Assembly (NCBI GenBank): GCA_040757115.1
Contig: JBFLYA010000007.1
Coordinates: 1 to 40,160 of the forward strand
Direction of reading: 5' to 3'
From: a bacterium
GTDB lineage: Bacteria > UBA9089 > CG2-30-40-21 > SBAY01
Length of the DNA: 40,160 nt
Shown one piece after another: positions 4,218 through 38,353 of the stretch. The position numbers and the translations under genes were made by a program. The first letter of the stretch is position 1; each line of letters starts with the position of its first letter. The notes beneath the pieces are model-generated. The model saw nothing but the letters and a program-made list of their open reading frames with translations. It searched no databases and was not told the DNA's origin.

Positions 4218-4561
4218 GTATTTTTTTGTAATTATTCAACCAGTGATTGACAGGGAGATGAAAAGTAGGCTGAAGGCTGAAGGACATAGGATAAAAAATC
4301 TTCAGCCTTAAGCCTTCCGCCTTCAGCCTATTCACAGGAAAAACGGTCATGAACCGTTAGTTCACAAATGAAGATGAAAATAGTAGATAGGAGATAGAAG
4401 GTGGGAGATGGGGAGATAAGCGTGAGGAGTGATGTTTTCTTTACTTTCTACTTTCTACTCTCTACTCTCTACTTCCTATTTTCAGAAGAATGCTTATTCC
4501 TGTCCTTAAATTATTATTTTTGGGTCGTTTAAAATTATTCCCTACAAAAAAGGAAGAAGGT
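4218..4561. repeat. Repeat-filled region upstream of cas6
   Basis: 4271-4332 is an inverted repeat of AGGCTGAAGGC against GCCTTCAGCCT. 4341-4485 is a repeat with a purine-rich left arm (AGGAGATAGAAGG) and a pyrimidine-rich right arm (CTTTCTACTTTCTAC). The second block recurs at 24983-25138 in the same orientation. No clear promoter for cas6 was found here. Confidence 0.55.
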
Positions 4562-5503
4562 ATGTATATACACATTGCATCAGTTATGCTCAATCTGAAG
4601 GCATTAGAGCCAATCATCCTCCCTTCTTACAAAGGCTCGACGCTAAGGGGAGGATTTGGGACTGCCTTTAAGCGAGTAGTTTGTGCCATAAAGGATAAGG
4701 AATGTCCAGACTGCCTGCTGAAAGAAAAATGCGTTTATTCATATATCTTTGAAACCCCGCCTCCAAAAGATACAAAGATTATGCGTAAATACACCTCTGC
4801 ACCTCACCCATTTGTTATTGAGCCACCAGAGGAAAAACGCATAGGCTATAAACCTGGTGATGAGATAAACTTCTCCCTTATTTTAATCGGCAAGGCAATA
4901 GATTACCTGCCTTATTTTATCTATACCTTTCAAGAACTTGGGAAGATAGGAATAGGCAAGGATAGAGGCAAGTTTGAGTTGGAACAAGTGGCTTGTGATG
5001 GAGAGACAATCTATGATTCTAAAGATAAAACGCTTAAATCCATTACCCCTTCAACCTTATCGGTAGGCTTTGACAATACTTATGACCCATTTACCCTTGA
5101 AACCTTAACCTTAAATTTTCTCACCCCCACCCGTATCCTTTATGATAACCATCTTACGATTGAGCTTAATTTCGAGATTCTGCTCAGGCAACTTTTGCGC
5201 CGCATCTCTCTCCTCTACTACTTTCATTGTAATGGTGACCCATCTGAATGGGATTTCAGGAGAATAATTTACAAATCCAAACAGGTAAAGACAATAAAAC
5301 GGATGTTAGACTGGTATGACTGGGAGCGATACTCTGCCCGGCAGGATACCAGAATGAAACTGGGTGGGTTTGTGGGAGAAATAACCTTTGAGGGCAATAT
5401 TGAGCCATTCATCCCTTTAATTAAAGCAGGTGAGGTATTGCATATTGGCAAAGGCACAAGCTTTGGACTGGGGAGATATAAAGTAGTATCAGCAACCTGC
5501 TGA
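4562..5503 (+). CDS. cas6: CRISPR pre-crRNA processing endoribonuclease Cas6
   Basis: Cuts precursor CRISPR RNA within the repeats to release crRNAs with an 8-nt 5' handle. It is a two-RAMP-fold protein. The C-terminal domain shows the glycine-rich loop typical of Cas6 (HIGKGTSFGLGRYKV), and the N-terminal part has LRGGFGTAFKRV followed by a Cys cluster (C41, C48, C51, C57, with CPDCLLKEKC) that could bind metal. I prefer the ATG at 4562 (313 residues), preceded by GGAAGAAGG. An upstream ATG at 4490 is in repeat-derived sequence and would add a hydrophobic 24-residue tail of no family likeness. It is separated from cas10 by about 1 kb of repeats and a broken nucleotidyltransferase. A catalytic histidine cannot be assigned with confidence, as is common in Cas6. 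Confidence 0.85.
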   Translation: MYIHIASVMLNLKALEPIILPSYKGSTLRGGFGTAFKRVVCAIKDKECPDCLLKEKCVYSYIFETPPPKDTKIMRKYTSAPHPFVIEPPEEKRIGYKPGDEINFSLILIGKAIDYLPYFIYTFQELGKIGIGKDRGKFELEQVACDGETIYDSKDKTLKSITPSTLSVGFDNTYDPFTLETLTLNFLTPTRILYDNHLTIELNFEILLRQLLRRISLLYYFHCNGDPSEWDFRRIIYKSKQVKTIKRMLDWYDWERYSARQDTRMKLGGFVGEITFEGNIEPFIPLIKAGEVLHIGKGTSFGLGRYKVVSATC

Positions 5504-6043
5504 CAAAGCTACTCTGAAATTTCCACCAGTAATCGGTCAGTTATTGGTGGGCGAAAGGCACAAAGATTAAATTTCTCGCCAAGGTGCAAAGGAATAAATT
5601 ATAATCTTTGTGAACTTTGCGTCTTTGCGAGAGAAAATTTATATTTACTCGATATTCAAGTTTTTTTAAGATTAAGTGGTTTATCCTTTTTTAACCGCAA
5701 AGAACGCAAAGAAATTAACCGCAAAGAACGCAAAGATTATAGTGCTCTGTTAAGATTGAAGTTGCATGTTACTTAGGTAATCGGTAATCAGTAATCGGAG
5801 ATAACAGGCCATTGTTTTCTCTTCACCGATAACCTGATAACCGATAACTTTCTAAACATAGCAAAGCAAACTTAACAAAGCAATAGGTTGTTCACCACCT
5901 TATTTTCCTTCCTTTGCGTCCTTTGCGAAATCTTCCTTTGCGCTCTTTGCGGTTAAATCTTTATACCTTTAAAAAACTTGAACATCAAGTATTTAGTTTT
6001 TACCACCGATAACTGAGGGATTACTTCCACCTTGAATTTTTTC
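5504..6043. repeat. Repeat block between cas6 and the nucleotidyltransferase relic
   Basis: No gene is seen. 5555-5640 pairs a CTCGCCAAGGTGCAAAG arm with a CTTTGCGTCTTTGCGAGAG arm. 5690-5960 is bounded by AACCGCAAAGAACGCAAAG and CTTTGCGCTCTTTGCGGTT, with an inner TAATCGGTAATCAGTAATCGG segment. These are imperfect inverted repeats of the kind seen throughout the window. Confidence 0.55.
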
Positions 6044-6072
6044 TTGACATTTTTAATGATAAATAGTATATT
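6044..6072 (+). promoter_or_regulatory. Consensus sigma-70 promoter upstream of the cas10-csm genes
   Basis: TTGACA (6044-6049), a 17-base spacer and TATATT (6067-6072). It drives the broken nucleotidyltransferase at 6102 and is the best visible promoter for the cas10-csm2-csm3-csm4 operon that follows. Confidence 0.7.
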
Positions 6073-6101
6073 AAGAGTATCTAAAAAGCAGAGGTAGAGT
6101 T

Positions 6102-6435
6102 ATGAATAACGGGTTAAACGAAAAGGAGCTAAAGAATATTATTAAAACCTTACAGGGATTTTCCTCAAATTGAACAAGCGATTATATTCGGTTCACGCGC
6201 CAAAGGAAGCCATAAAAAAGGCTCTGATGTTGATCTGGCCATAAAAGGCAAGGATATTACCGAAGAAACAATCAAACATCTAAGCTTCACCCTTAACGAA
6301 GAAATCCCCTTACCATATTTTTTTGATGTAGTTCATTACGAAAGCATAAACAACCCTGATTTGATTGAACATATCAACCGTGTGGGGAAAATTATTTATA
6401 AAGGAGCAGATGGCACAAACCCGAATGAGGAATAA
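6102..6435 (+). pseudogene. Frameshifted MntA-like nucleotidyltransferase
   Basis: The ATG at 6102 follows GAGGTAGAG and opens MNNGLNEKELKNIIKTLQ, then the frame runs into TGA after seven more codons. Removing one G from the GGG near 6156 restores a complete nucleotidyltransferase of about 110 residues with the superfamily core IIFGSRAKGSHKKGSDVDLAIKG (GS-x10-DxD). Proteins of this type act as MntA antitoxins that AMPylate a HepT partner. No HepT gene follows, so the copy is orphaned and broken. It lies between cas6 and cas10 and shares the promoter at 6044. Either a real frameshift or a one-base sequence error would explain the break. Confidence 0.8.
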
Positions 6436-6471
6436 TACTATACCACAGCCCAATTTTCAAGAGGTAAAAAG

Positions 6472-6555
6472 ATGAAAGATAATAATCAAGAATATCAAAC
6501 CGTAATCTTAGCCGCACTTCTGTATGGTTTGGGAAGGAGGGAGAAATATGATTAA
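6472..6555 (+). pseudogene. Relic of the Cas10 N-terminal HD domain
   Basis: A 27-codon frame starting at the ATG at 6472 reads MKDNNQEYQTVILAALLYGL then GRREKYD. The start of Cas10/Csm1 proteins is typically EYQTVILAALLHDIGKF, where H and D are the nuclease metal ligands. Here the HD pair reads YG (one base change each would convert CAT to TAT and GAT to GGT) and the frame closes eight codons later, overlapping the start of the remaining cas10 by eight bases. The HD domain is therefore degenerate and almost entirely missing. The purine run GGAAGGAGGGAGAA inside the relic now forms the ribosome binding site of the truncated cas10. Confidence 0.7.
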
Positions 6556-8854
6556 TAATAAGCACTTAGAAGAATTATTGAAGCCGATTTTTATAGATGG
6601 ACTACTTGAAACCATCAATTGGTATAAATCAGATGCTCCCTATTATCTCAGGTCTATATTTAATCAGGTAGGTTTTAAAGATAGGGATGGGAAAGAGGCT
6701 ATTTACTATACCTCACCCTCAAGTCTTTCATCTCAGATTGTATATCCAAAGTCAGACAAAAATGGGCTAAAAAGGATTAAAAAAGAGGTGTTGGAGCAGA
6801 TAAATGAGTACTATAAAGCCTTTTCAAAAGACTACCTTGATTCTCTAAATTCTAACCAGCTACTTTTCCTGCTTGAGAAATTTGGTGGAAATGTGCCTAT
6901 AAAGGAATCAGAAGTTACATCAATCTTTGATGTATATAAAATTAAAGCAGCAAAAGCGGTTATCCAATTAAATAGAGAAAATTTAGAACATCACGATAAT
7001 CTGCTTATAAATATTGACCTATCAGGAATCCAGAGATTTATCTATAATATCTCTTCCTCTGGAGCATCAAAAAATCTCCGCTCCCGTTCCTTCTTTGTTG
7101 AACTTTTGTCTAATCATCTTATCTATAAAGTGTTAAATGCTTTAAACCTCCATTATGTAAATGTCATTATGAATGGTGGAGGCAATATTTACATACTTTC
7201 AGGTTGCCCCAAGGAAGATGAAGACCCTCTCATTAACATCGCCTATAGCCTTAACCGGTGGTTTCTAAGAGAATTCAATGGAAAACTTTATGCTGCCTTT
7301 AGCTATGTTAAATGTTCGGATGAGGAACTCAAGATGAATCTTCCAGGCTTATTAAGAGAAATTTCAAACCAGGCATTTACTAAAAAACGCATGAAGTTCA
7401 AAGCCATTATAGAAAGGGGTGAATTCCCTTTTGTGGAAGAAACTGACCCAAATTCTCAAAGTTGTGAAATTTGCTATAGAGATGATTCCACAATCAGAGT
7501 TCAGGAGGAGGAAGTCAGATGTTCCTTGTGCCAAAGACTTATTGAACTTGGTAATCAGATACCAAAAGCAAAATTTATCTACAGTTACAACAAGGATGAT
7601 AGAGAATGTCTACCGATAGAGGCCTCATATTATCTTTTGTCTGAAGTGAAAAAAGACTTAAGGTGTTTATGGGTTGTTTTTGAAGATAGAGAGGATTTTA
7701 TAGAAGACATTGAAGACTCTGCTACATATATATTTGTAAAGACATATATCACAAAGATTGGTGATTTGGATGAAACTGTGCTCAGAAACAAAGAGACAGA
7801 ATCAATGGTAAAAGAAGATATTGCCCCTCTTGAAGATATTGCTGAAAGTTCAAAAGGTGCGAAACTCATTGGAGCTTTAAGAATGGATGCAGACAATATA
7901 GGTAAAATTCTGCATTCCGGTTTTTACGAAGGTGCAAATCTTGAGCTCCTATCATCTCTTTCAAGAAATATGAATTATTTCTTTAAATTATATCTGGAAT
8001 CGTTATGTAAGGGAACAGAATCCCTTTCTACCAGGAACAACCATCGTTTAAGTGGTCATGTTATATATGCCGGAGGTGACGACCTTTTCATTCTTGGTGC
8101 ATGGGACAAGACTGCCTCTCTTGCAATTGACATTGGAAAAGCCTTTAAAAAATATACCTGCGAAAATATTGATATTGGTCTAAGTGGAGGACTTACACTT
8201 CACAATCCTAAATTTCCTGTAAGCAAGATGGCAGAGACATCAATGAGGGCTTTAAAAACAGCAAAAGAGAACCTTGAACCCTGTTGGATGTGCAGGAAGG
8301 AATGGATTACTTGCCCTCTTTATGAAATAGGTAAGTGCTTAAGAAAGGACTCGTTTGCCCCATTCTTTACCGAATATCTGTTATCTCGTAAAAAGAAATT
8401 TAGCGAAAGGTTTAGAACCCCCAAATATTCCCAAGAACCGCCAAGATTGAAACTTGCCCTCAAATGGGAAAAATATAAGAGAGAAGAAGCGAAGGTGGTT
8501 GATGAGGTTAATGAATATATCTTAAAACCTTTAGATGCATTTAAAAAAGGAAGCAATTTGCTACCACAGGGATTTTTTCATAATACCTTGAATTTGCTGG
8601 AGATATGGTATAATGAAGACCTGCTCTATCTTCCTAAAATTGTATGGGGTCTTGAAAAGGTTAAAAGAGAGTTGAAAAAGCAAAAGATTGAGAGCGAAGA
8701 GGGGAAATCTCTTTATGAACTTTATGAAATGTATCTCCATTTTAATAAAGGGATGTTTTCAACATTGTATATACCCCTTTCTTGGGTTATACTTTTAACC
8801 AGAGGAGGTGATGAAATTGATTACGAGAAAGCCAATGGAGGAAAAACTCTATGA
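6548..8854 (+). CDS. cas10: Type III-A CRISPR large subunit Cas10/Csm1 lacking the HD domain
   Basis: Large subunit of the type III interference complex. On target RNA binding its Palm domain makes cyclic oligoadenylates. I chose the ATG at 6548 (768 residues) because GGAAGGAGGG precedes it by the right distance; an ATG at 6524 is in frame but lacks a site. Visible parts: no HD domain; first Palm with NLLINIDLSGIQRFIY (about residues 151-166); a zinc-binding Cys4 (CEIC 306-309, CSLC 325-328); second Palm with the cyclase motif YAGGDDLFIL (GGDD at 509-512). A second Cys cluster at C579, C582, C589 and C597 sits in an insertion after the cyclase motif. With HD lost, DNA cutting by Cas10 is unlikely and signalling should dominate (inference). 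The 3' end overlaps csm2 by 44 bases. Confidence 0.93.
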   Translation: MINNKHLEELLKPIFIDGLLETINWYKSDAPYYLRSIFNQVGFKDRDGKEAIYYTSPSSLSSQIVYPKSDKNGLKRIKKEVLEQINEYYKAFSKDYLDSLNSNQLLFLLEKFGGNVPIKESEVTSIFDVYKIKAAKAVIQLNRENLEHHDNLLINIDLSGIQRFIYNISSSGASKNLRSRSFFVELLSNHLIYKVLNALNLHYVNVIMNGGGNIYILSGCPKEDEDPLINIAYSLNRWFLREFNGKLYAAFSYVKCSDEELKMNLPGLLREISNQAFTKKRMKFKAIIERGEFPFVEETDPNSQSCEICYRDDSTIRVQEEEVRCSLCQRLIELGNQIPKAKFIYSYNKDDRECLPIEASYYLLSEVKKDLRCLWVVFEDREDFIEDIEDSATYIFVKTYITKIGDLDETVLRNKETESMVKEDIAPLEDIAESSKGAKLIGALRMDADNIGKILHSGFYEGANLELLSSLSRNMNYFFKLYLESLCKGTESLSTRNNHRLSGHVIYAGGDDLFILGAWDKTASLAIDIGKAFKKYTCENIDIGLSGGLTLHNPKFPVSKMAETSMRALKTAKENLEPCWMCRKEWITCPLYEIGKCLRKDSFAPFFTEYLLSRKKKFSERFRTPKYSQEPPRLKLALKWEKYKREEAKVVDEVNEYILKPLDAFKKGSNLLPQGFFHNTLNLLEIWYNEDLLYLPKIVWGLEKVKRELKKQKIESEEGKSLYELYEMYLHFNKGMFSTLYIPLSWVILLTRGGDEIDYEKANGGKTL

Positions 8855-9314
8855 AGAGTGGGGGCTAAAAACCGCAGAGGGGATACGAAACAAGATATTT
8901 GAAAACTATTCAGGGGATGCCACACTTAAAACTATCCTTGATGCTGAAAAATTGGTGGTGTGCAGTTATGCTTTGGGTAGGATACTCTCAAGTCCTGAGG
9001 TTCGTCTTAAAGTTGCTCAGCTAAGAAGGTTTTACGAGGCACTCCTTACCATTAGAGCTATTATCGGCACTATCAGGAAAAAGCCAAAGGTAGATGCAGA
9101 TGAGTCGTTTAAAACTATGGTAAGGAATAAAATCCTGATGTTGAAACCTCGGCTTGCCGATGCTAAGGCAAGACAACCACGCGAGGTAACCCCTTTCTTT
9201 GAGGTAATCAATCCATTGATTGATATGGTAAGAGATATTGAGGATTACGACAGGCTCTGTGAGTTTGTCGAAGCAATAGTCGCCTACCACAGATATTGTG
9301 GGGGAAGAGACTAA
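8811..9314 (+). CDS. csm2: Type III-A CRISPR small subunit Csm2
   Basis: Helical small subunit that lines the crRNA-target duplex in the Csm complex. The product of about 167 residues has an N-terminal EWGLKTAEGIRNKIFENYSG and the Csm2-like block SSPEVRLKVAQLRRFYEALL, with a C-terminal helix ending CEFVEAIVAYHRYCGGRD. The start is uncertain. AGGAGG (8803-8808) is too close to the ATG at 8811, while an in-frame TTG at 8817 has ideal spacing and an ATG at 8835 is also possible. The gene overlaps the end of cas10. The following csm3 ATG lies 20 bases after its stop, with its own site. The identity is supported by position and sequence. Confidence 0.88.
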   Translation: MKLITRKPMEEKLYEEWGLKTAEGIRNKIFENYSGDATLKTILDAEKLVVCSYALGRILSSPEVRLKVAQLRRFYEALLTIRAIIGTIRKKPKVDADESFKTMVRNKILMLKPRLADAKARQPREVTPFFEVINPLIDMVRDIEDYDRLCEFVEAIVAYHRYCGGRD

Positions 9315-9334
9315 ACAAAAAGGAGGTATTTACT

Positions 9335-10246
9335 ATGGGAGAAAATGGACATAGGCTTTTAATGGGAAAGGTGCTTTTCGGGGGGAAAATTATTTTAGAG
9401 ACAGGACTTCATATCGGTGGGTCCCAGGAGTCTATGCAGATAGGTGGTGTTGACCTGCCAGTTATCAGGGATTCGGCAAACAACCTGCCCTATATTCCTG
9501 GAAGTTCTTTAAAGGGAAAACTAAGAAGCACCCTTGAGAAATTTGGAGAGCGGATTAAGGAGAATAAAAGGGAGAAACTCTCCTCCAACCGAAATATAGG
9601 AACATACAGAAATCCCTTATTCATCCACTGCTGTGAAGATGTCAGATATTCATTATCCTGTGATGTCTGCAGAATCTTTGGCTCAAGTGGTGATGATAGG
9701 TCTGTCCCAAAAGGGGAAAAGGCGGAAAATTTCCCATCACTATTGATGGTTAGAGACTGTCTTCTCGATGAAAGTCTGATAGAGGTCTCTTCTGTTTTTA
9801 CTGAGGTAAAGATAGAAACCGGTATAGACAGGACAACTATGTCTGCCAATCCAAGAAGGATTGAAAGGGTTTTGCCTGATAATGTGTTCAAATTTGAAAT
9901 GGTTTATACCGTTGACTCACTTGGATTTACAGGTAGAGACAAACCTTGCTTTAGAGAAGATGCCTTAAAAAGAGACCTGAATAACCTTCTAACTTGTATG
10001 GAGATTATCCAGAATGAAGGGATAGGAGGTTATACCTCTCGGGGTTATGGCAAGATAAAATTTACATTTAAAGAATTTGTGGGAAGGTCTCTGGGTTATT
10101 TTATGGGTGATGAGAGAAAGTGGAAGGGTAAAGTAGAAAAAGAGGGAGAATTTACCATAGAAGAGGCAAGGGGTGAGATAGACAATATTGTGAACTTTTT
10201 GAAAGAGGAGGCACAAGGTGTTATTGCTGGCAAGGATGAGATTTAA
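9335..10246 (+). CDS. csm3: Type III-A CRISPR backbone RAMP protein Csm3
   Basis: Repeating backbone subunit of the Csm complex, which cuts bound target RNA every six nucleotides. The ATG at 9335 follows AGGAGGT by seven bases, so I use it instead of an upstream in-frame start at 9296; this gives 303 residues. Motifs: LETGLHIGGS near residues 21-30, IGGVDLPVIRD (36-46) with the likely catalytic aspartate D40, PYIPGSSLKGKLRSTLE, and the RAMP glycine-rich loop GIGGYTSRGYGKIKF. A Cys-rich piece (HCCEDVRYSLSCDVCRIFGSS) matches the Cys motif before CRIFG in many Csm3 proteins. The C-terminal 60 residues after the loop are longer than usual and charged. The gene overlaps csm4 by 29 bases. Confidence 0.93.
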   Translation: MGENGHRLLMGKVLFGGKIILETGLHIGGSQESMQIGGVDLPVIRDSANNLPYIPGSSLKGKLRSTLEKFGERIKENKREKLSSNRNIGTYRNPLFIHCCEDVRYSLSCDVCRIFGSSGDDRSVPKGEKAENFPSLLMVRDCLLDESLIEVSSVFTEVKIETGIDRTTMSANPRRIERVLPDNVFKFEMVYTVDSLGFTGRDKPCFREDALKRDLNNLLTCMEIIQNEGIGGYTSRGYGKIKFTFKEFVGRSLGYFMGDERKWKGKVEKEGEFTIEEARGEIDNIVNFLKEEAQGVIAGKDEI

Positions 10247-11186
10247 AAGGGCTATATCCATTGGAGGTGGAGATTTATCCCTTGGGGAAGGATTTACCGG
10301 TATTCTTCATTCAGACACAATCTTTAGTGGTATTGCCAATAAGTTGGCTGAGATACCCAGCAATTACGATGGTGGATATTCTATAAAGGAATTAATTAGC
10401 AATTTGAACACTGATTCTCCTCCCTTTAGAATTTCCTCAGCCTTCCCTTATTTTATGGATGAATATTACCTTCCCACCCCATACGGGACAGGTGAACTGT
10501 ATCTGGAGAAATTAAAAGATGTTCCCCTCATTAAGCTCTCTGATTTTCTTGAGCTTGCCTCAGGCAACTACGAAAGAATCAAAAAGAAACCACTCAAAGA
10601 TTCTGTTAATGAGCTGATGGTAAGTTTTACTGCCCCGAGGGTGACCATTGATAGAATAACTACCTCTACAAATATCTATCAGACTACCGGATGGCTGATG
10701 AATCAAGACTGTGGGCTTTACTTTTTAATAGACCTTAAAGATGAATTACTCAAGGATAAACTTTTGCTGTGTATAAGGCTTCTGGGTGAAAGTGGAATAG
10801 GTGGTGATAGAAGCATCGGTTATGGTATTTTTGATTCAGAGCTTATTGAGATAGATAATTTGCCTGAATGGTCTGAGTTATTTCAAGAAAGAGGCGGGAA
10901 AAACACTTCTTATTATTCCCTTTCACTCTGCTATCCCTCAAACAATGATGAGGCAAAAGAGGCTATATCGTATAATATTCTTTCCAGAAAGGGCTGGATC
11001 TTCTCAAGCTCCTCTATAAAACAGAGCAAACGCAGAGAATGTAAGATGTTTGCCGAGGGCTCATTATTTAAAAGCCCAATAAAAGGTCAGATGGCAAAGG
11101 TAGCTCCCTCAAGGTTTCGCCAGGAGGAACATGAGGTCTATAGATACGGACTTGGGATGATGGTTGAAATTGTTAATCATTATTAA
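10218..11186 (+). CDS. csm4: Type III-A CRISPR protein Csm4
   Basis: RAMP subunit that binds the 5' handle of the crRNA and joins Cas10 to the backbone. The product is 322 residues from a GTG at 10218, which follows GAGGAGG by six bases; an ATG at 10236 is an alternative. Typical Csm4 features are the first strand LARMRFKRAISIGGGDLSL, LHSDTIFSGIANKL, SSAFPYFMDEYYLPTP, the RAMP loop GESGIGGDRSIGYG, and a C-terminal RYGLGMMVEI. It overlaps csm3, showing translational coupling. The next gene in this position would normally be csm5, but no RAMP protein follows. The following gene encodes a PD-(D/E)XK-like protein instead. Confidence 0.9.
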   Translation: MLLLARMRFKRAISIGGGDLSLGEGFTGILHSDTIFSGIANKLAEIPSNYDGGYSIKELISNLNTDSPPFRISSAFPYFMDEYYLPTPYGTGELYLEKLKDVPLIKLSDFLELASGNYERIKKKPLKDSVNELMVSFTAPRVTIDRITTSTNIYQTTGWLMNQDCGLYFLIDLKDELLKDKLLLCIRLLGESGIGGDRSIGYGIFDSELIEIDNLPEWSELFQERGGKNTSYYSLSLCYPSNNDEAKEAISYNILSRKGWIFSSSSIKQSKRRECKMFAEGSLFKSPIKGQMAKVAPSRFRQEEHEVYRYGLGMMVEIVNHY

Positions 11187-11196
11187 GGAGTCTTTT

Positions 11197-12096
11197 ATGG
11201 GGATTGATGCTTTAAAGTTAGATGATTATATAAAGGATTGTTTAATCCTTAAGGCAAGGTTGGAAAATGACTTTAAAACTTCGTATGAGAAACTCCTATG
11301 CTCAACAATAGACATTAAATTTACTGAGTTAAATAAAAAAATAGAACCTTTTAAAACATTTAATGATGCAAATAGAAAAATTGAAGAGGCAGGCGCACAT
11401 TTGTGCGTTATAGAAAAGGATATTCTACAGTTTGCTGGCCTTGATGCAGAGAAAACTGAGAATTTATTTAAACCAATAAAAGAATCCGTAGAGAAGATAA
11501 TTAAGAATTTTCAAAAGGGGTTAGCCATCATTAACACCGAGACAGTCCGATTATTTAAAGAAATCAGTGAATGCTCACCAGGAGACGGTAAAAGCTTTCA
11601 AGATCTTGTTCTTGAATTCTTTGATGTCATATTTATAGATGAAATAAATAGATATAGATATGGAGAGGAAGAACCAAAAGAGCTAAAAAAAAGAGAATTT
11701 AAGATTTTAAAAAGGCTTGATGGATTTTATACTAAGTGTGATTCCTTTGATGCGAAACAAAGAATAGGCTTTGAGTTTCAGGGATTAATTATAGAGTGTA
11801 AAAACAAAAGACCAGATATAAATGATTTGATGCAATGCTTTAAATATACTCTTTATTTTCAAGATACAGAATTATCTAAGGTGCCATTGACATTGTTGGT
11901 GGGTAGGGATTCACCAAGAGAAAATAGTTCAATCTGGGAGATAAATAGGAAAATATTTGATAAGTCAATAGCCAATGAAACAAGGCTTATTTTAATTCTG
12001 GATAGGAAAGATTTAGGTGAAATGAAGGAAAATAAAGTTAAAGGTAGAGATTCAGCTATGGTTATAAAAGATAAGGTGAAAAAATTCAGCTCCTAA
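11197..12096 (+). CDS. Coiled-coil PD-(D/E)XK nuclease-like protein in the csm5 position
   Basis: Not a known Cas protein as far as I can tell. I use the ATG at 11197, which follows AAGGAG by six bases (299 residues). Residues 1-125 are charged and helical, probably coiled coil, with no RAMP, CARF or SAVED features that I can see. From about 130 the sequence fits the restriction-endonuclease-like fold: GKSFQDLVLEFF (E140), KRLDGFY (D175), GLIIECKNK (E200 and K202) and a following helix with Q213. All core PD-(D/E)XK positions appear intact, so it could cut nucleic acid. It begins ten bases after csm4 and ends ten bases before the CARF gene, so it is part of the operon. Possible roles are a substitute cap subunit, an ancillary nuclease, or an unrelated guest; none can be decided from sequence. 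Confidence 0.7.
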   Translation: MGIDALKLDDYIKDCLILKARLENDFKTSYEKLLCSTIDIKFTELNKKIEPFKTFNDANRKIEEAGAHLCVIEKDILQFAGLDAEKTENLFKPIKESVEKIIKNFQKGLAIINTETVRLFKEISECSPGDGKSFQDLVLEFFDVIFIDEINRYRYGEEEPKELKKREFKILKRLDGFYTKCDSFDAKQRIGFEFQGLIIECKNKRPDINDLMQCFKYTLYFQDTELSKVPLTLLVGRDSPRENSSIWEINRKIFDKSIANETRLILILDRKDLGEMKENKVKGRDSAMVIKDKVKKFSS

Positions 12097-12106
12097 GGAG
12101 GAAAAT

Positions 12107-13090
12107 ATGGATAATTTAGAAAGTCTCTTTGAAATTTGGAAACAGAGGAATTGCAATCTGAATTTTTATTTTCAGCACATATTTAATCAGGCATTAGAGG
12201 CTCTTGCCAATAATACCACAAGTAAAATAAGAGAAGAAATAGGTAAAGGCAGATATAAAGCCTTATTCACTCCGGTTGGTTACTCTATAGAAAATATTGC
12301 CCTTATCTCTGGCTTTATTAAACCAAAGTATTTGATGATGGCTTTCTCTGAAAAAACCAGGAGTTTCCACAGAAGACATATAGATTTGGTTAAAGAGAAT
12401 ATAAAAAATATGTGTCCAGATATGAAAATTGATGAGGTTATGATTCTCAGTGATGACCAAAAAATTACCGAACAAAAAATTGTAAGCTGGATTGAAGAAA
12501 TGAATGCAGGATACAACCTTTCAAATAACCAATTGGCTATTGATCTAACCGGTGGAACAAAGCCAATGTCTATCGGTGCTTATAATGCCGCTGTATCCTT
12601 TAAAGATGTAGAGGCATTCTATCTGTGGACTGATTATGACGAAGATACTCAGATGCCAATTCCTGGCACTGAAAGGCTTGTTCAGCTAATAAAAGAAAAA
12701 TCTCAGTTAGATGAAGACTTCGTATTTGTTATTATGCCATTTAATGAGGAATTTAATAATGTTTATGACCGTATAAAGGAAGTAGTTGAAAGTTTAGGGA
12801 TGAGGTGCGAAAGGGTAGATGAACAGATTTTTTTCGGTGGGATTATGGATAAGATTAAAGAAAACTTGATAAAGGCAAGGATTATTATTGCTGAGTTATC
12901 AGAAAAGAATCTGAATGTATACTATGAGCTTGGACTATCTCATGGATATGAAAAAAGGGTAATAATGCTTACCCAGGATGTTAACAATTTGCCATTTGAT
13001 TTGCGACACTTAAGGATGGTAATTTATAATAAAAATAATCTTTTTGGGTTAAAAGAAAAACTTAGAAACGAGATTAAATCTGCTCTTTGA
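12107..13090 (+). CDS. CARF-like sensor plus TIR-like effector (type III ancillary protein)
   Basis: Predicted signal-activated effector of the CRISPR system. The 327-residue protein has two parts. Residues about 50-190 look like a CARF domain: FTPVGYSIENIALISGFIKP, then LAIDLTGGTKPMSIGAYNAA with the DLTGGTK motif (146-152) found in Card1/Can-type and Csx1-like CARF proteins, then an FYLWTDYD strand. Residues about 203-325 match the TIR-like/deoxyribosyltransferase-like fold: FVFVIMPFNEEFNNVYDRIK, ARIIIAELSEKNLNVYYELG with the conserved glutamate E274, and PFDLRHLRMVIY. The known CARF-TIR effector Cat1 degrades NAD+ on cyclic tetra-adenylate binding, and a similar role here is inference. The ATG follows TAAGGAGGAAAAT. 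It is the last gene before the CRISPR array. Confidence 0.82.
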   Translation: MDNLESLFEIWKQRNCNLNFYFQHIFNQALEALANNTTSKIREEIGKGRYKALFTPVGYSIENIALISGFIKPKYLMMAFSEKTRSFHRRHIDLVKENIKNMCPDMKIDEVMILSDDQKITEQKIVSWIEEMNAGYNLSNNQLAIDLTGGTKPMSIGAYNAAVSFKDVEAFYLWTDYDEDTQMPIPGTERLVQLIKEKSQLDEDFVFVIMPFNEEFNNVYDRIKEVVESLGMRCERVDEQIFFGGIMDKIKENLIKARIIIAELSEKNLNVYYELGLSHGYEKRVIMLTQDVNNLPFDLRHLRMVIYNKNNLFGLKEKLRNEIKSAL

Positions 13091-13093
13091 AAA

Positions 13094-13278
13094 GTGAATA
13101 AGACCTGATGAATAAGGGATTGCGACTCGTAGTAAAAAAGAGAGTCATGTTCTGGATTTGGCTTGATCCGTGCGAATAATAGACCTGATGAATAAGGGAT
13201 TGCGACAATCCAGGAAAGTTAAACAGCCAAAGTCTATTTTTGTGCGAATAATAGACCTGATGAATAAGGGATTGCGAC
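13094..13278 (+). CRISPR. CRISPR array remnant: three repeats and two spacers
   Basis: Repeats are at 13094-13126 (5' end degenerate), 13170-13206 and 13242-13278. The intact unit is 37 bp, from GTGCGAATAATAGACCTGAT to ATTGCGAC; the last eight bases match the 5' handle form of type III crRNAs, so the array is read on the plus strand. Spacers are 13127-13169 (43 bp) and 13207-13241 (35 bp). A fourth repeat survives at 13975-14011 beyond a transposase gene. The array begins four bases after the CARF-TIR gene. Confidence 0.9.
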
Positions 13279-13323
13279 GAAGAAAGCGGGACTCGGGGCT
13301 CGGGGCTCGGGGAAAAAGGAGGA

Positions 13324-13348
13324 ATGTAGTGAGGGTCTTTAGACCCGT
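13324..13348. repeat. Left REP palindrome of the transposase element
   Basis: ATGTAGTGAGGGTCTTTAGA and onward to CCCGT is an inverse of 13860-13884 with one base difference. It lies just upstream of the transposase gene. Confidence 0.65.
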
Positions 13349-13377
13349 CTTTAGTCTTTTACAGGAGGTAAAAAATT

Positions 13378-13842
13378 GTGTCAGCACCAAGATTAGAAAA
13401 TTTTGATTATATTGGTTATGCTGCTTATTCAATCACAATATGTTGTAATTTTAAACATAACTATTTTGAATCAGATAAAACAGTCCATGAATGTATAAAT
13501 ATATTAAAAGAGATTGCAGAAAAATATCAATTCAAGATTTATTTATACACATTTATGCCCGACCATTTGCACTTATGTGTTATTGGTGATTCTGAAAATG
13601 CAAATTTACAAAAGATGATTAAGATATTTAAACAGAAATGTGGATTCTGGTTTAAAAAAGAATATAATAAACAGTTGTTTCAACAAGGATACTATGACCA
13701 TATTATTAGGAAAGAAGAAGGGATTGAAAATGTAATGAAATATATTGCCAATAATCCAGTAAGAAAAGAACTATGTAAAAATTTTGAAGATTATAGATTT
13801 ACAGGTTCATTTGAGTTTGATGTAAATAAAATATTTATGTAG
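13378..13842 (+). CDS. REP-associated tyrosine transposase (Y1_Tnp family)
   Basis: Single-strand DNA transposase-like protein (RAYT/IS200-IS605 superfamily). It starts at GTG 13378, which follows AGGAGGT by eight bases, and has 154 residues. The HUH-type site reads FMPDHLHLCVIG (HLH) and the catalytic tyrosine is probably in QGYYDHIIRKEEG; the C-terminal YIANNPVRKEL motif is typical of the family. Matching REP-like palindromes flank it (13324-13348 and 13860-13908). The gene lies between two repeats of the CRISPR array, so it seems to have landed in the array. The reading frame is intact. Confidence 0.88.
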   Translation: MSAPRLENFDYIGYAAYSITICCNFKHNYFESDKTVHECINILKEIAEKYQFKIYLYTFMPDHLHLCVIGDSENANLQKMIKIFKQKCGFWFKKEYNKQLFQQGYYDHIIRKEEGIENVMKYIANNPVRKELCKNFEDYRFTGSFEFDVNKIFM

Positions 13843-13974
13843 TTTCCAGTTTAGTTTCTAAAACGGGTCTAAAGACCTCACTACATTTTAAAAGACCCTC
13901 ACTACATTTTAATAGGTTAGGTTAGTATTTTTAGCCTTGCCGAGCCACTATGTGCAAGGGGTTTTGACCCCTGC

Positions 13975-14011
13975 GTGCGAATAATAGACCTGATGAATAA
14001 GAGATTGCGAC
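13975..14011 (+). CRISPR. Fourth CRISPR repeat, separated by the transposase
   Basis: A full 37-bp copy with one change (GAG for GGG near its 3' end), in the same orientation as the array. It lies 697 bases after the third repeat, on the far side of the transposase gene. Confidence 0.85.
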
Positions 14012-38280: not shown

Positions 38281-38351
38281 CCACCACCCGAGCCCCGAGT
38301 CCCGGACCCCGAGCCCCGTTTTCTTCGTCGCAATCCCTTATTCATCAGGTC
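38281..38351 (-). repeat. GC-rich tract with truncated CRISPR repeat
   Basis: 38327-38351 is 25 bp of the CRISPR repeat in reverse orientation (GTCGCAATCCCTTATTCATC and AGGTC), missing the other 12. Next to it, on its 3' side, is GAAGAAAACGGGGCTCGGGG read on the minus strand, almost the same as GAAGAAAGCGGGACTCGGGG at 13279, which follows repeat 3 of the main array. Confidence 0.75.
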
Positions 38352-38353
38352 GA

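What the first reader, a model, noticed from the sequence alone, without database searches (positions are those of the whole stretch)
11197..12096. csm5 is missing and a coiled-coil PD-(D/E)XK protein occupies its position
The operon order is cas10, csm2, csm3, csm4, then this gene, where csm5 normally follows. It shows no RAMP glycine-rich loop but has an intact nuclease core (E140, D175, E200, K202, Q213) after a helical N-terminus. It has no visible CARF or SAVED domain, so it is either an integral part of an altered complex or a new ancillary nuclease.
Basis: partly seen in the sequence, partly recalled or inferred. Interest (0 to 1): 0.72.

Follow-up and report, generated by a model that had tools for sequence, protein, structure and literature searches.

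The report
Csm5-less type III-A CRISPR with nuclease
In a rare lineage of a bacterial CRISPR immune system, the gene for one standard part (csm5) is gone and a fast-evolving, probable nucleic-acid-cutting enzyme of no known family sits in its place, and the same swap is seen in a bacterium of another phylum.

Summary
The operon cas10-csm2-csm3-csm4 is followed not by csm5 but by a 299-aa gene (11197-12096) and then a CARF effector. No Csm5, RAMP or other profile matches the gene. In 83 type III-A loci, csm5 followed csm4 in 78; three were cut by a contig end; only two lack it with room to spare: this window and Nitrospirae RBG_13_39_12 (L028). L028 has the identical gene order, with a diverged homologue in the same slot, and its genome holds no csm5. 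All five proposed catalytic residues have counterparts there, so a PD-(D/E)XK nuclease is likely, but no profile or confident model proves it. The window's genome has a second, ordinary III-A operon whose csm5 start is cut by a contig end. Csm4 places the window, L028 and a Spirochaetales locus in one clade (100/99). The nuclease is only 22-31% identical between window and L028, while its operon partners are 52-71%; true Csm5 keeps pace with Csm4. It therefore does not evolve like a Csm5-type subunit. Best reading: a csm5-less III-A derivative carrying a new ancillary nuclease. What it cuts and what switches it on remain inferred.

The parts
11197..12096 (+). Probable PD-(D/E)XK nuclease with a helical N-terminus (residues 1-125) and core (about 130-280), in the csm5 slot
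   Evidence: ORF and residues; homologue in the same slot of L028; no family match
10230..11186 (+). csm4 (Cas5 group)
   Evidence: TIGR01903 232 bits, Csm4_C 7.7e-23; 56% identical to L028 Csm4
9335..10246 (+). csm3 (Cas7 group) with intact IGGxD catalytic aspartate
   Evidence: TIGR02582 167 bits; motif
8811..9314 (+). csm2 (Cas11 group)
   Evidence: Csm2_III-A 2.5e-20
6548..8854 (+). cas10/csm1 with GGDD cyclase motif, no HD nuclease motif
   Evidence: TIGR02578 421 bits, matched from model position 92; motifs
12107..13090 (+). CARF protein with a C-terminal TIR-like / deoxyribosyltransferase-like domain, the evident cOA effector
   Evidence: CARF_Card1 3.5e-7, TIR effector profile PDLC00733 2.4e-7; PDB Cam1 4.4e-5; 59% identical to the L028 copy
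4490..5503 (+). cas6 (crRNA-processing endoribonuclease)
   Evidence: CRISPR_Cas6 8.6e-20; PADLOC Cas6 4.3e-112
13090..14011 (+). Eroded CRISPR array: 37-nt repeats at 13090 (degenerate), 13170, 13242 and 13975, interrupted by an IS200-type transposase gene
   Evidence: Y1_Tnp 5.1e-15 for 13378-13842

Best explanation
This is a lineage-specific derivative of type III-A in which csm5 has been lost and the slot between csm4 and the CARF effector gene is held by a fast-evolving probable PD-(D/E)XK nuclease. Shown by sequence: the gene order, the absence of csm5 from this operon and from the held L028 genome, the conserved motif, and the rate contrast. Inferred: a Cas10-Csm2-Csm3-Csm4-crRNA complex assembles without Csm5, cuts target RNA through Csm3, and makes cyclic oligoadenylate through the Cas10 cyclase, which activates the CARF-TIR-like effector. 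The co-expressed nuclease is an ancillary weapon, more likely acting on DNA, and not a structural stand-in for Csm5. Its helical N-terminus probably controls it through a partner or target. No cOA-binding domain was found in it, so its trigger must be indirect (the complex, the CARF protein, or a nucleic-acid state).
For: Same gene order and homologue in the same slot in another phylum. csm5 follows csm4 in 78 of 83 III-A loci and is missing, with room to spare, only here and in L028; no csm5 in the L028 genome. Csm4 clade of window, L028 and L029 at 100/99. Motif residues kept while the rest diverges. Nuclease 22% identical overall, partners 52-71%, whereas Csm5 averages 56% in pairs with comparable Csm4 identity. 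A complex without Csm5 can form in S. epidermidis (PMC9762709). Intact GGDD and IGGxD motifs. Frames overlap or lie 10 nt apart.
Against: Only two nuclease sequences are known, so slot conservation rests on one replicate. The PD-(D/E)XK fold is not confirmed by any profile or confident model. No sensor domain explains activation. Fast divergence could also hide a loosely docked subunit.
Confidence: 0.5

Rival explanations
1. Built-in trimming or target-clearing nuclease. Csm5's documented non-structural job is to recruit the housekeeping exonucleases PNPase and RNase R for crRNA 3' maturation and clearance of invader nucleic acid. Here a dedicated nuclease encoded in the same slot does that job itself, making Csm5 dispensable.
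For: Exchange in exactly the csm5 slot; [quoted passage not shown]
Against: The nuclease diverges far faster than Csm5 does. The characterised trimmers are 3'-5' exoribonucleases, whereas PD-(D/E)XK enzymes are mostly DNases (established knowledge).
Confidence: 0.15
2. Integral DNase subunit that compensates for the missing HD nuclease domain of Cas10, docking on Csm4/Csm3 by its helical N-terminus.
For: Cas10 of all three clade members lacks the HD motif; the gene is tightly linked to csm4.
Against: By a crude motif test 48 of 57 Cas10s in the sample lack HD, and most of those loci keep csm5, so HD loss is not special to this clade. The N-terminus, the putative docking part, is the least conserved region.
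Confidence: 0.17
3. Slot turnover: csm5 was lost once, and different helical-plus-nuclease defence genes were installed in the gap independently in the two lineages. They are passengers of the defence operon and not part of its mechanism.
For: 22% overall identity against 59% for the next gene, and an N-terminus not alignable above shuffles.
Against: The core is homologous far above chance (z=21), the length and layout are alike, no relatives were found elsewhere to act as donors, and the CARF neighbour has stayed in place at 59%.
Confidence: 0.1
4. Csm5 is supplied in trans from the second III-A operon of the same genome (contig C57), so this complex is ordinary and the nuclease merely inserted in the operon.
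For: A csm5 start lies in that operon. In-trans sharing between CRISPR loci is known in general (PMC11229360).
Against: The C57 Csm4 is only about 32% identical to this one. The L028 genome, with the same csm5-less operon, has no csm5 match.
Confidence: 0.07

Closest known systems
Type III-A (Csm) CRISPR-Cas
   Same: Cas10/Csm1, Csm2, Csm3 and Csm4 in canonical order, with cas6, a repeat array and a CARF effector
   Different: No csm5 in the operon; a nuclease gene of no known family in its slot
III-A2 variant (PMC12669027)
   Same: A III-A derivative lacking one backbone-associated subunit, with a nuclease encoded nearby in some members (NucC)
   Different: III-A2 lacks Cas11; this system keeps Csm2/Cas11 and lacks Csm5. 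The gene does not match any NucC model
I-E3 variant (PD-(D/E)XK fused to Cas11; PMC12669027)
   Same: A PD-(D/E)XK nuclease recruited into a class 1 effector operon
   Different: Type I, fused to Cas11; here type III, separate gene
Can1/Can2/Card1 (CARF plus PD-(D/E)XK)
   Same: Probable PD-(D/E)XK nuclease in a type III locus
   Different: No CARF domain detected in this protein; the CARF domain is in the neighbouring gene
Csm5
   Same: Gene position after csm4
   Different: No RAMP profile match, a different predicted fold, and a different rate of evolution
Cat1 (CARF-TIR; PMC12162218), compared with the neighbour gene
   Same: CARF fused to a TIR-like domain in a type III context
   Different: Here the CARF half is Card1/Cam1-like and the C-terminal half lies between TIR and deoxyribosyltransferase profiles; substrate untested

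Membership tests
Type III-A (Csm) | Cas10/Csm1, Csm2, Csm3 and Csm4 present | tested here: met
   All above NCBIfam cut-offs
Type III-A (Csm) | csm5 present in the operon | tested here: not met
   No profile hit; iterated Csm5 HMM finds only csm3 here and in L028
Csm5 | TIGR01899 / RAMP (Cas7-group) match | tested here: not met
   No match for 11197-12096
PD-(D/E)XK nuclease superfamily | E...D-X(n)-(D/E)XK...Q motif conserved in a diverged homologue | tested here: met
   E140, E200, K202, Q213 identical in L028; D175 pairs with a D in both alignments, though MAFFT and BLASTP choose different ones
PD-(D/E)XK nuclease superfamily | alpha-beta-beta-beta-alpha-beta core fold | tested here: inconclusive
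   Element order is compatible, but pLDDT is 42 and 51; Foldseek gives no nuclease match
PD-(D/E)XK nuclease superfamily | Profile match to a known member family | tested here: not met
   None in Pfam, NCBIfam, PADLOC; nothing convincing in PHROGs or PDB sequences
PD-(D/E)XK nuclease superfamily | Metal-dependent nuclease activity | not testable with these tools
   Needs purified protein
CARF/SAVED-dependent type III effectors (Can1/Can2/Card1, NucC) | CARF or SAVED sensor, or NucC family match | tested here: not met
   No such profile matches the gene, while the adjacent gene scores well on CARF profiles in the same runs

The most novel reading that the evidence does not exclude
A type III-A complex in which Csm5 has been replaced, in its gene slot and in its nuclease-recruiting function, by a dedicated nuclease subunit, so that the effector complex carries its own trimming or DNA-cutting enzyme at the crRNA 3' end.
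Probability: 0.2. Interest if true: 0.8.

Novelty: new variant of a known kind. Interest (0 to 1): 0.52.

Why it matters
Csm5 was present in every other III-A locus sampled with enough sequence to judge, apart from a fragmentary copy in one organism and one unresolved contig end. A natural csm5-less lineage is a ready experiment on what Csm5 is for (capping the filament versus recruiting trimming nucleases), and it offers an uncharacterised probable nuclease family tied to type III immunity with no recognisable cOA sensor.

Tried and rejected
Searches for homologues in plasmids, phages, viral contigs and genome contigs gave nothing. Weak genome hits were read as chance: L019 (response regulator/GGDEF protein), L091 (frame antisense to another gene), L113 (glycosyltransferase), L114 and L115 (short or broken frames); L092 and L116 were not opened. 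AF2 models of both nucleases were low confidence (pLDDT 42 and 51), and Foldseek on the better one matched only helical bundles and similar. An hhalign control was uninformative: known nucleases Mrr, HsdR and Uma2 ranked no better than random ORFs, so it neither supports nor refutes the fold. An ORF in L074 with a weak hit is Cas6. 'The nuclease replaces the lost HD domain' was downgraded because HD loss is common in loci that keep csm5. Two spacers had no exact match in viral contigs. Searches of the Spirochaetales genome did not recover the continuation of its cut operon.

Full report
1. What is in the window. The window is all of contig C7 of a draft genome of 4.3 Mb in 462 contigs. On the + strand lie cas6 (4490-5503), cas10/csm1 (6548-8854), csm2 (8811-9314), csm3 (9335-10246), csm4 (10230-11186), the gene in question (11197-12096), a CARF protein gene (12107-13090), and an eroded 37-nt repeat array interrupted by an IS200-type transposase gene. 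Cas10, Csm2, Csm3 and Csm4 all exceed the curated NCBIfam cut-offs. Cas10 keeps the GGDD cyclase motif but has no HD nuclease motif; Csm3 keeps the IGGxD aspartate. The gene in question starts at ATG 11197 behind AAGGAG and encodes 299 aa.

2. Is csm5 really missing? The gene has no match to RAMP, Csm5 or any other curated family. I built a Csm5 HMM from four III-A loci, iterated it over the neighbourhoods of 83 csm4 genes, and asked whether csm5 follows csm4. It does in 78 (two of these are fragmentary copies from one organism, and some are cut by the contig end). L029 and L086 are cut by a contig end within 32 nt. L008 shows no csm5 in the 743 nt before its contig ends. Only the window and L028 have room and no csm5; their best Csm5-HMM hit is csm3. 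The genome does hold a csm5 start, at the end of contig C57, in a second and separate III-A operon. That operon's Csm4 is about 32% identical to this one.

3. An independent replicate. A scan of genome contigs with a Csm4 alignment found L028, a contig of Nitrospirae bacterium RBG_13_39_12, with the same order: cas10, csm2, csm3, csm4, a 333-aa gene, CARF gene, then repeat-like remnants. The 333-aa protein is a homologue (blastp E=1e-13 for the single comparison, 31% over 150 residues; phmmer 1.3e-11 among 10,054 ORFs). Its genome has no csm5 match. A Spirochaetales contig (L029) carries the same kind of cas10-csm2-csm3-csm4 but ends about 30 nt after csm4. A maximum-likelihood Csm4 tree puts the three together with support 100/99, and window plus L028 together with 97/79.

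4. What the protein is. E140, E200, K202 and Q213 are identical in L028, and D175 pairs with an aspartate in both alignments, though MAFFT and BLASTP pick different ones. The two AF2 models, low in confidence, show a helical N-terminal bundle followed by an order of helices and strands compatible with a PD-(D/E)XK core. No profile library, PDB sequence search, fold search or hhalign comparison confirms it. I therefore call it a probable PD-(D/E)XK nuclease of an unnamed family. The family is rare: protein or profile searches of 19 genomes of its own phylum, 396 of the phylum of L028 and 395 of the phylum of Desulfonema magnum found only these two members. Plasmid, phage and viral collections and a pattern scan of genome contigs (one genome for each of 84,980 species) gave none. 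The pattern scans are much less sensitive than a profile search; the genome scan did not recover even L028, which shares none of the peptide patterns.

5. Subunit or ancillary? Between window and L028 every partner is well conserved (cas10 52%, csm2 59%, csm3 71%, csm4 56%, CARF protein 59%), but the nuclease is 22% identical overall. Its core is clearly homologous (z=21 against shuffles) and its N-terminus is not alignable above chance (z=0.3; the first 45 residues give p=0.04). In ordinary III-A pairs whose Csm4s are 55-60% identical, Csm5 averages 56% (minimum 44%, n=153 pairs, which are not independent and mostly cyanobacterial). The slot occupant therefore does not evolve like Csm5. This favours an ancillary, rapidly evolving nuclease over a structural replacement, without excluding a loosely docked one. 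Loss of the Cas10 HD domain is not a strong argument for compensation: by a crude motif test 48 of 57 Cas10s in the sample lack it, and most of those loci keep csm5.

6. How it probably works. In S. epidermidis, deletion of csm5 abolishes crRNA maturation but lets the rest of the complex form, and Csm5 recruits or stimulates PNPase and RNase R (PMC9762709). A csm5-less complex is thus plausible. The complex here should still cut target RNA (Csm3) and make cOA (Cas10). The CARF-TIR-like protein is the evident cOA effector. The nuclease gene is arranged to be co-expressed with both: 10-nt gaps and good ribosome-binding sites in the window, overlapping reading frames in L028. It is most likely a second effector. 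Whether it acts on DNA or RNA, and what triggers it, is inferred and not shown.

7. Relation to known systems. The 2025 classification (PMC12669027) describes III-A2 (no Cas11, NucC in some systems) and I-E3 (PD-(D/E)XK fused to Cas11). The sections I read describe no csm5-less III-A variant with a separate nuclease, though its figure of new type III variants could not be seen; targeted literature searches found none. Absence from an open-access library is not proof. The system fails one defining feature of III-A (csm5), so I file it as a III-A derivative: a new variant of a known kind.

8. Limits. Two nuclease sequences are too few for a confident structure. The slot's conservation rests on one replicate beyond the window, both genomes are draft assemblies, and the third clade member is cut at the critical point.

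Noticed in passing
L024 (contig C57 of the same genome), 5089-9950: A second, divergent III-A operon (cas10, csm2, csm3, csm4) with the first 51 codons or so of csm5 before the contig ends.
   Followed up: partly
12107-13090: CARF protein whose C-terminal half matches TIR-effector and nucleoside deoxyribosyltransferase profiles weakly and resembles uncharacterised plasmid proteins of Agrobacterium, Serratia and others (about 36% identity); possibly a new CARF fusion.
   Followed up: partly
13278-13975: The repeat array is interrupted by an IS200-type transposase gene (13378-13842) and the outer repeats are degenerate; no cas1 or cas2 was seen among the window's ORFs examined.
   Followed up: partly
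38327-38352: A solitary copy of the 3' part of the CRISPR repeat on the minus strand (one mismatch), far from the array.
   Followed up: no
6102-6430: Remnant that reads like a minimal nucleotidyltransferase (GSRAKGSHKKGSDVDLA-like) with a broken frame just upstream of cas10.
   Followed up: no
L008:2494-3233: In a genome of the same phylum (G011), csm4 is followed by a small coiled-coil-like ORF and no csm5 in the 743 nt before the contig ends; possibly another csm5-displaced locus.
   Followed up: no
L078:11381-11584 and L079:11480-11683: Two contigs of Mastigocoleus testarum carry csm4 followed only by a csm5 fragment, as if csm5 were decaying there.
   Followed up: no
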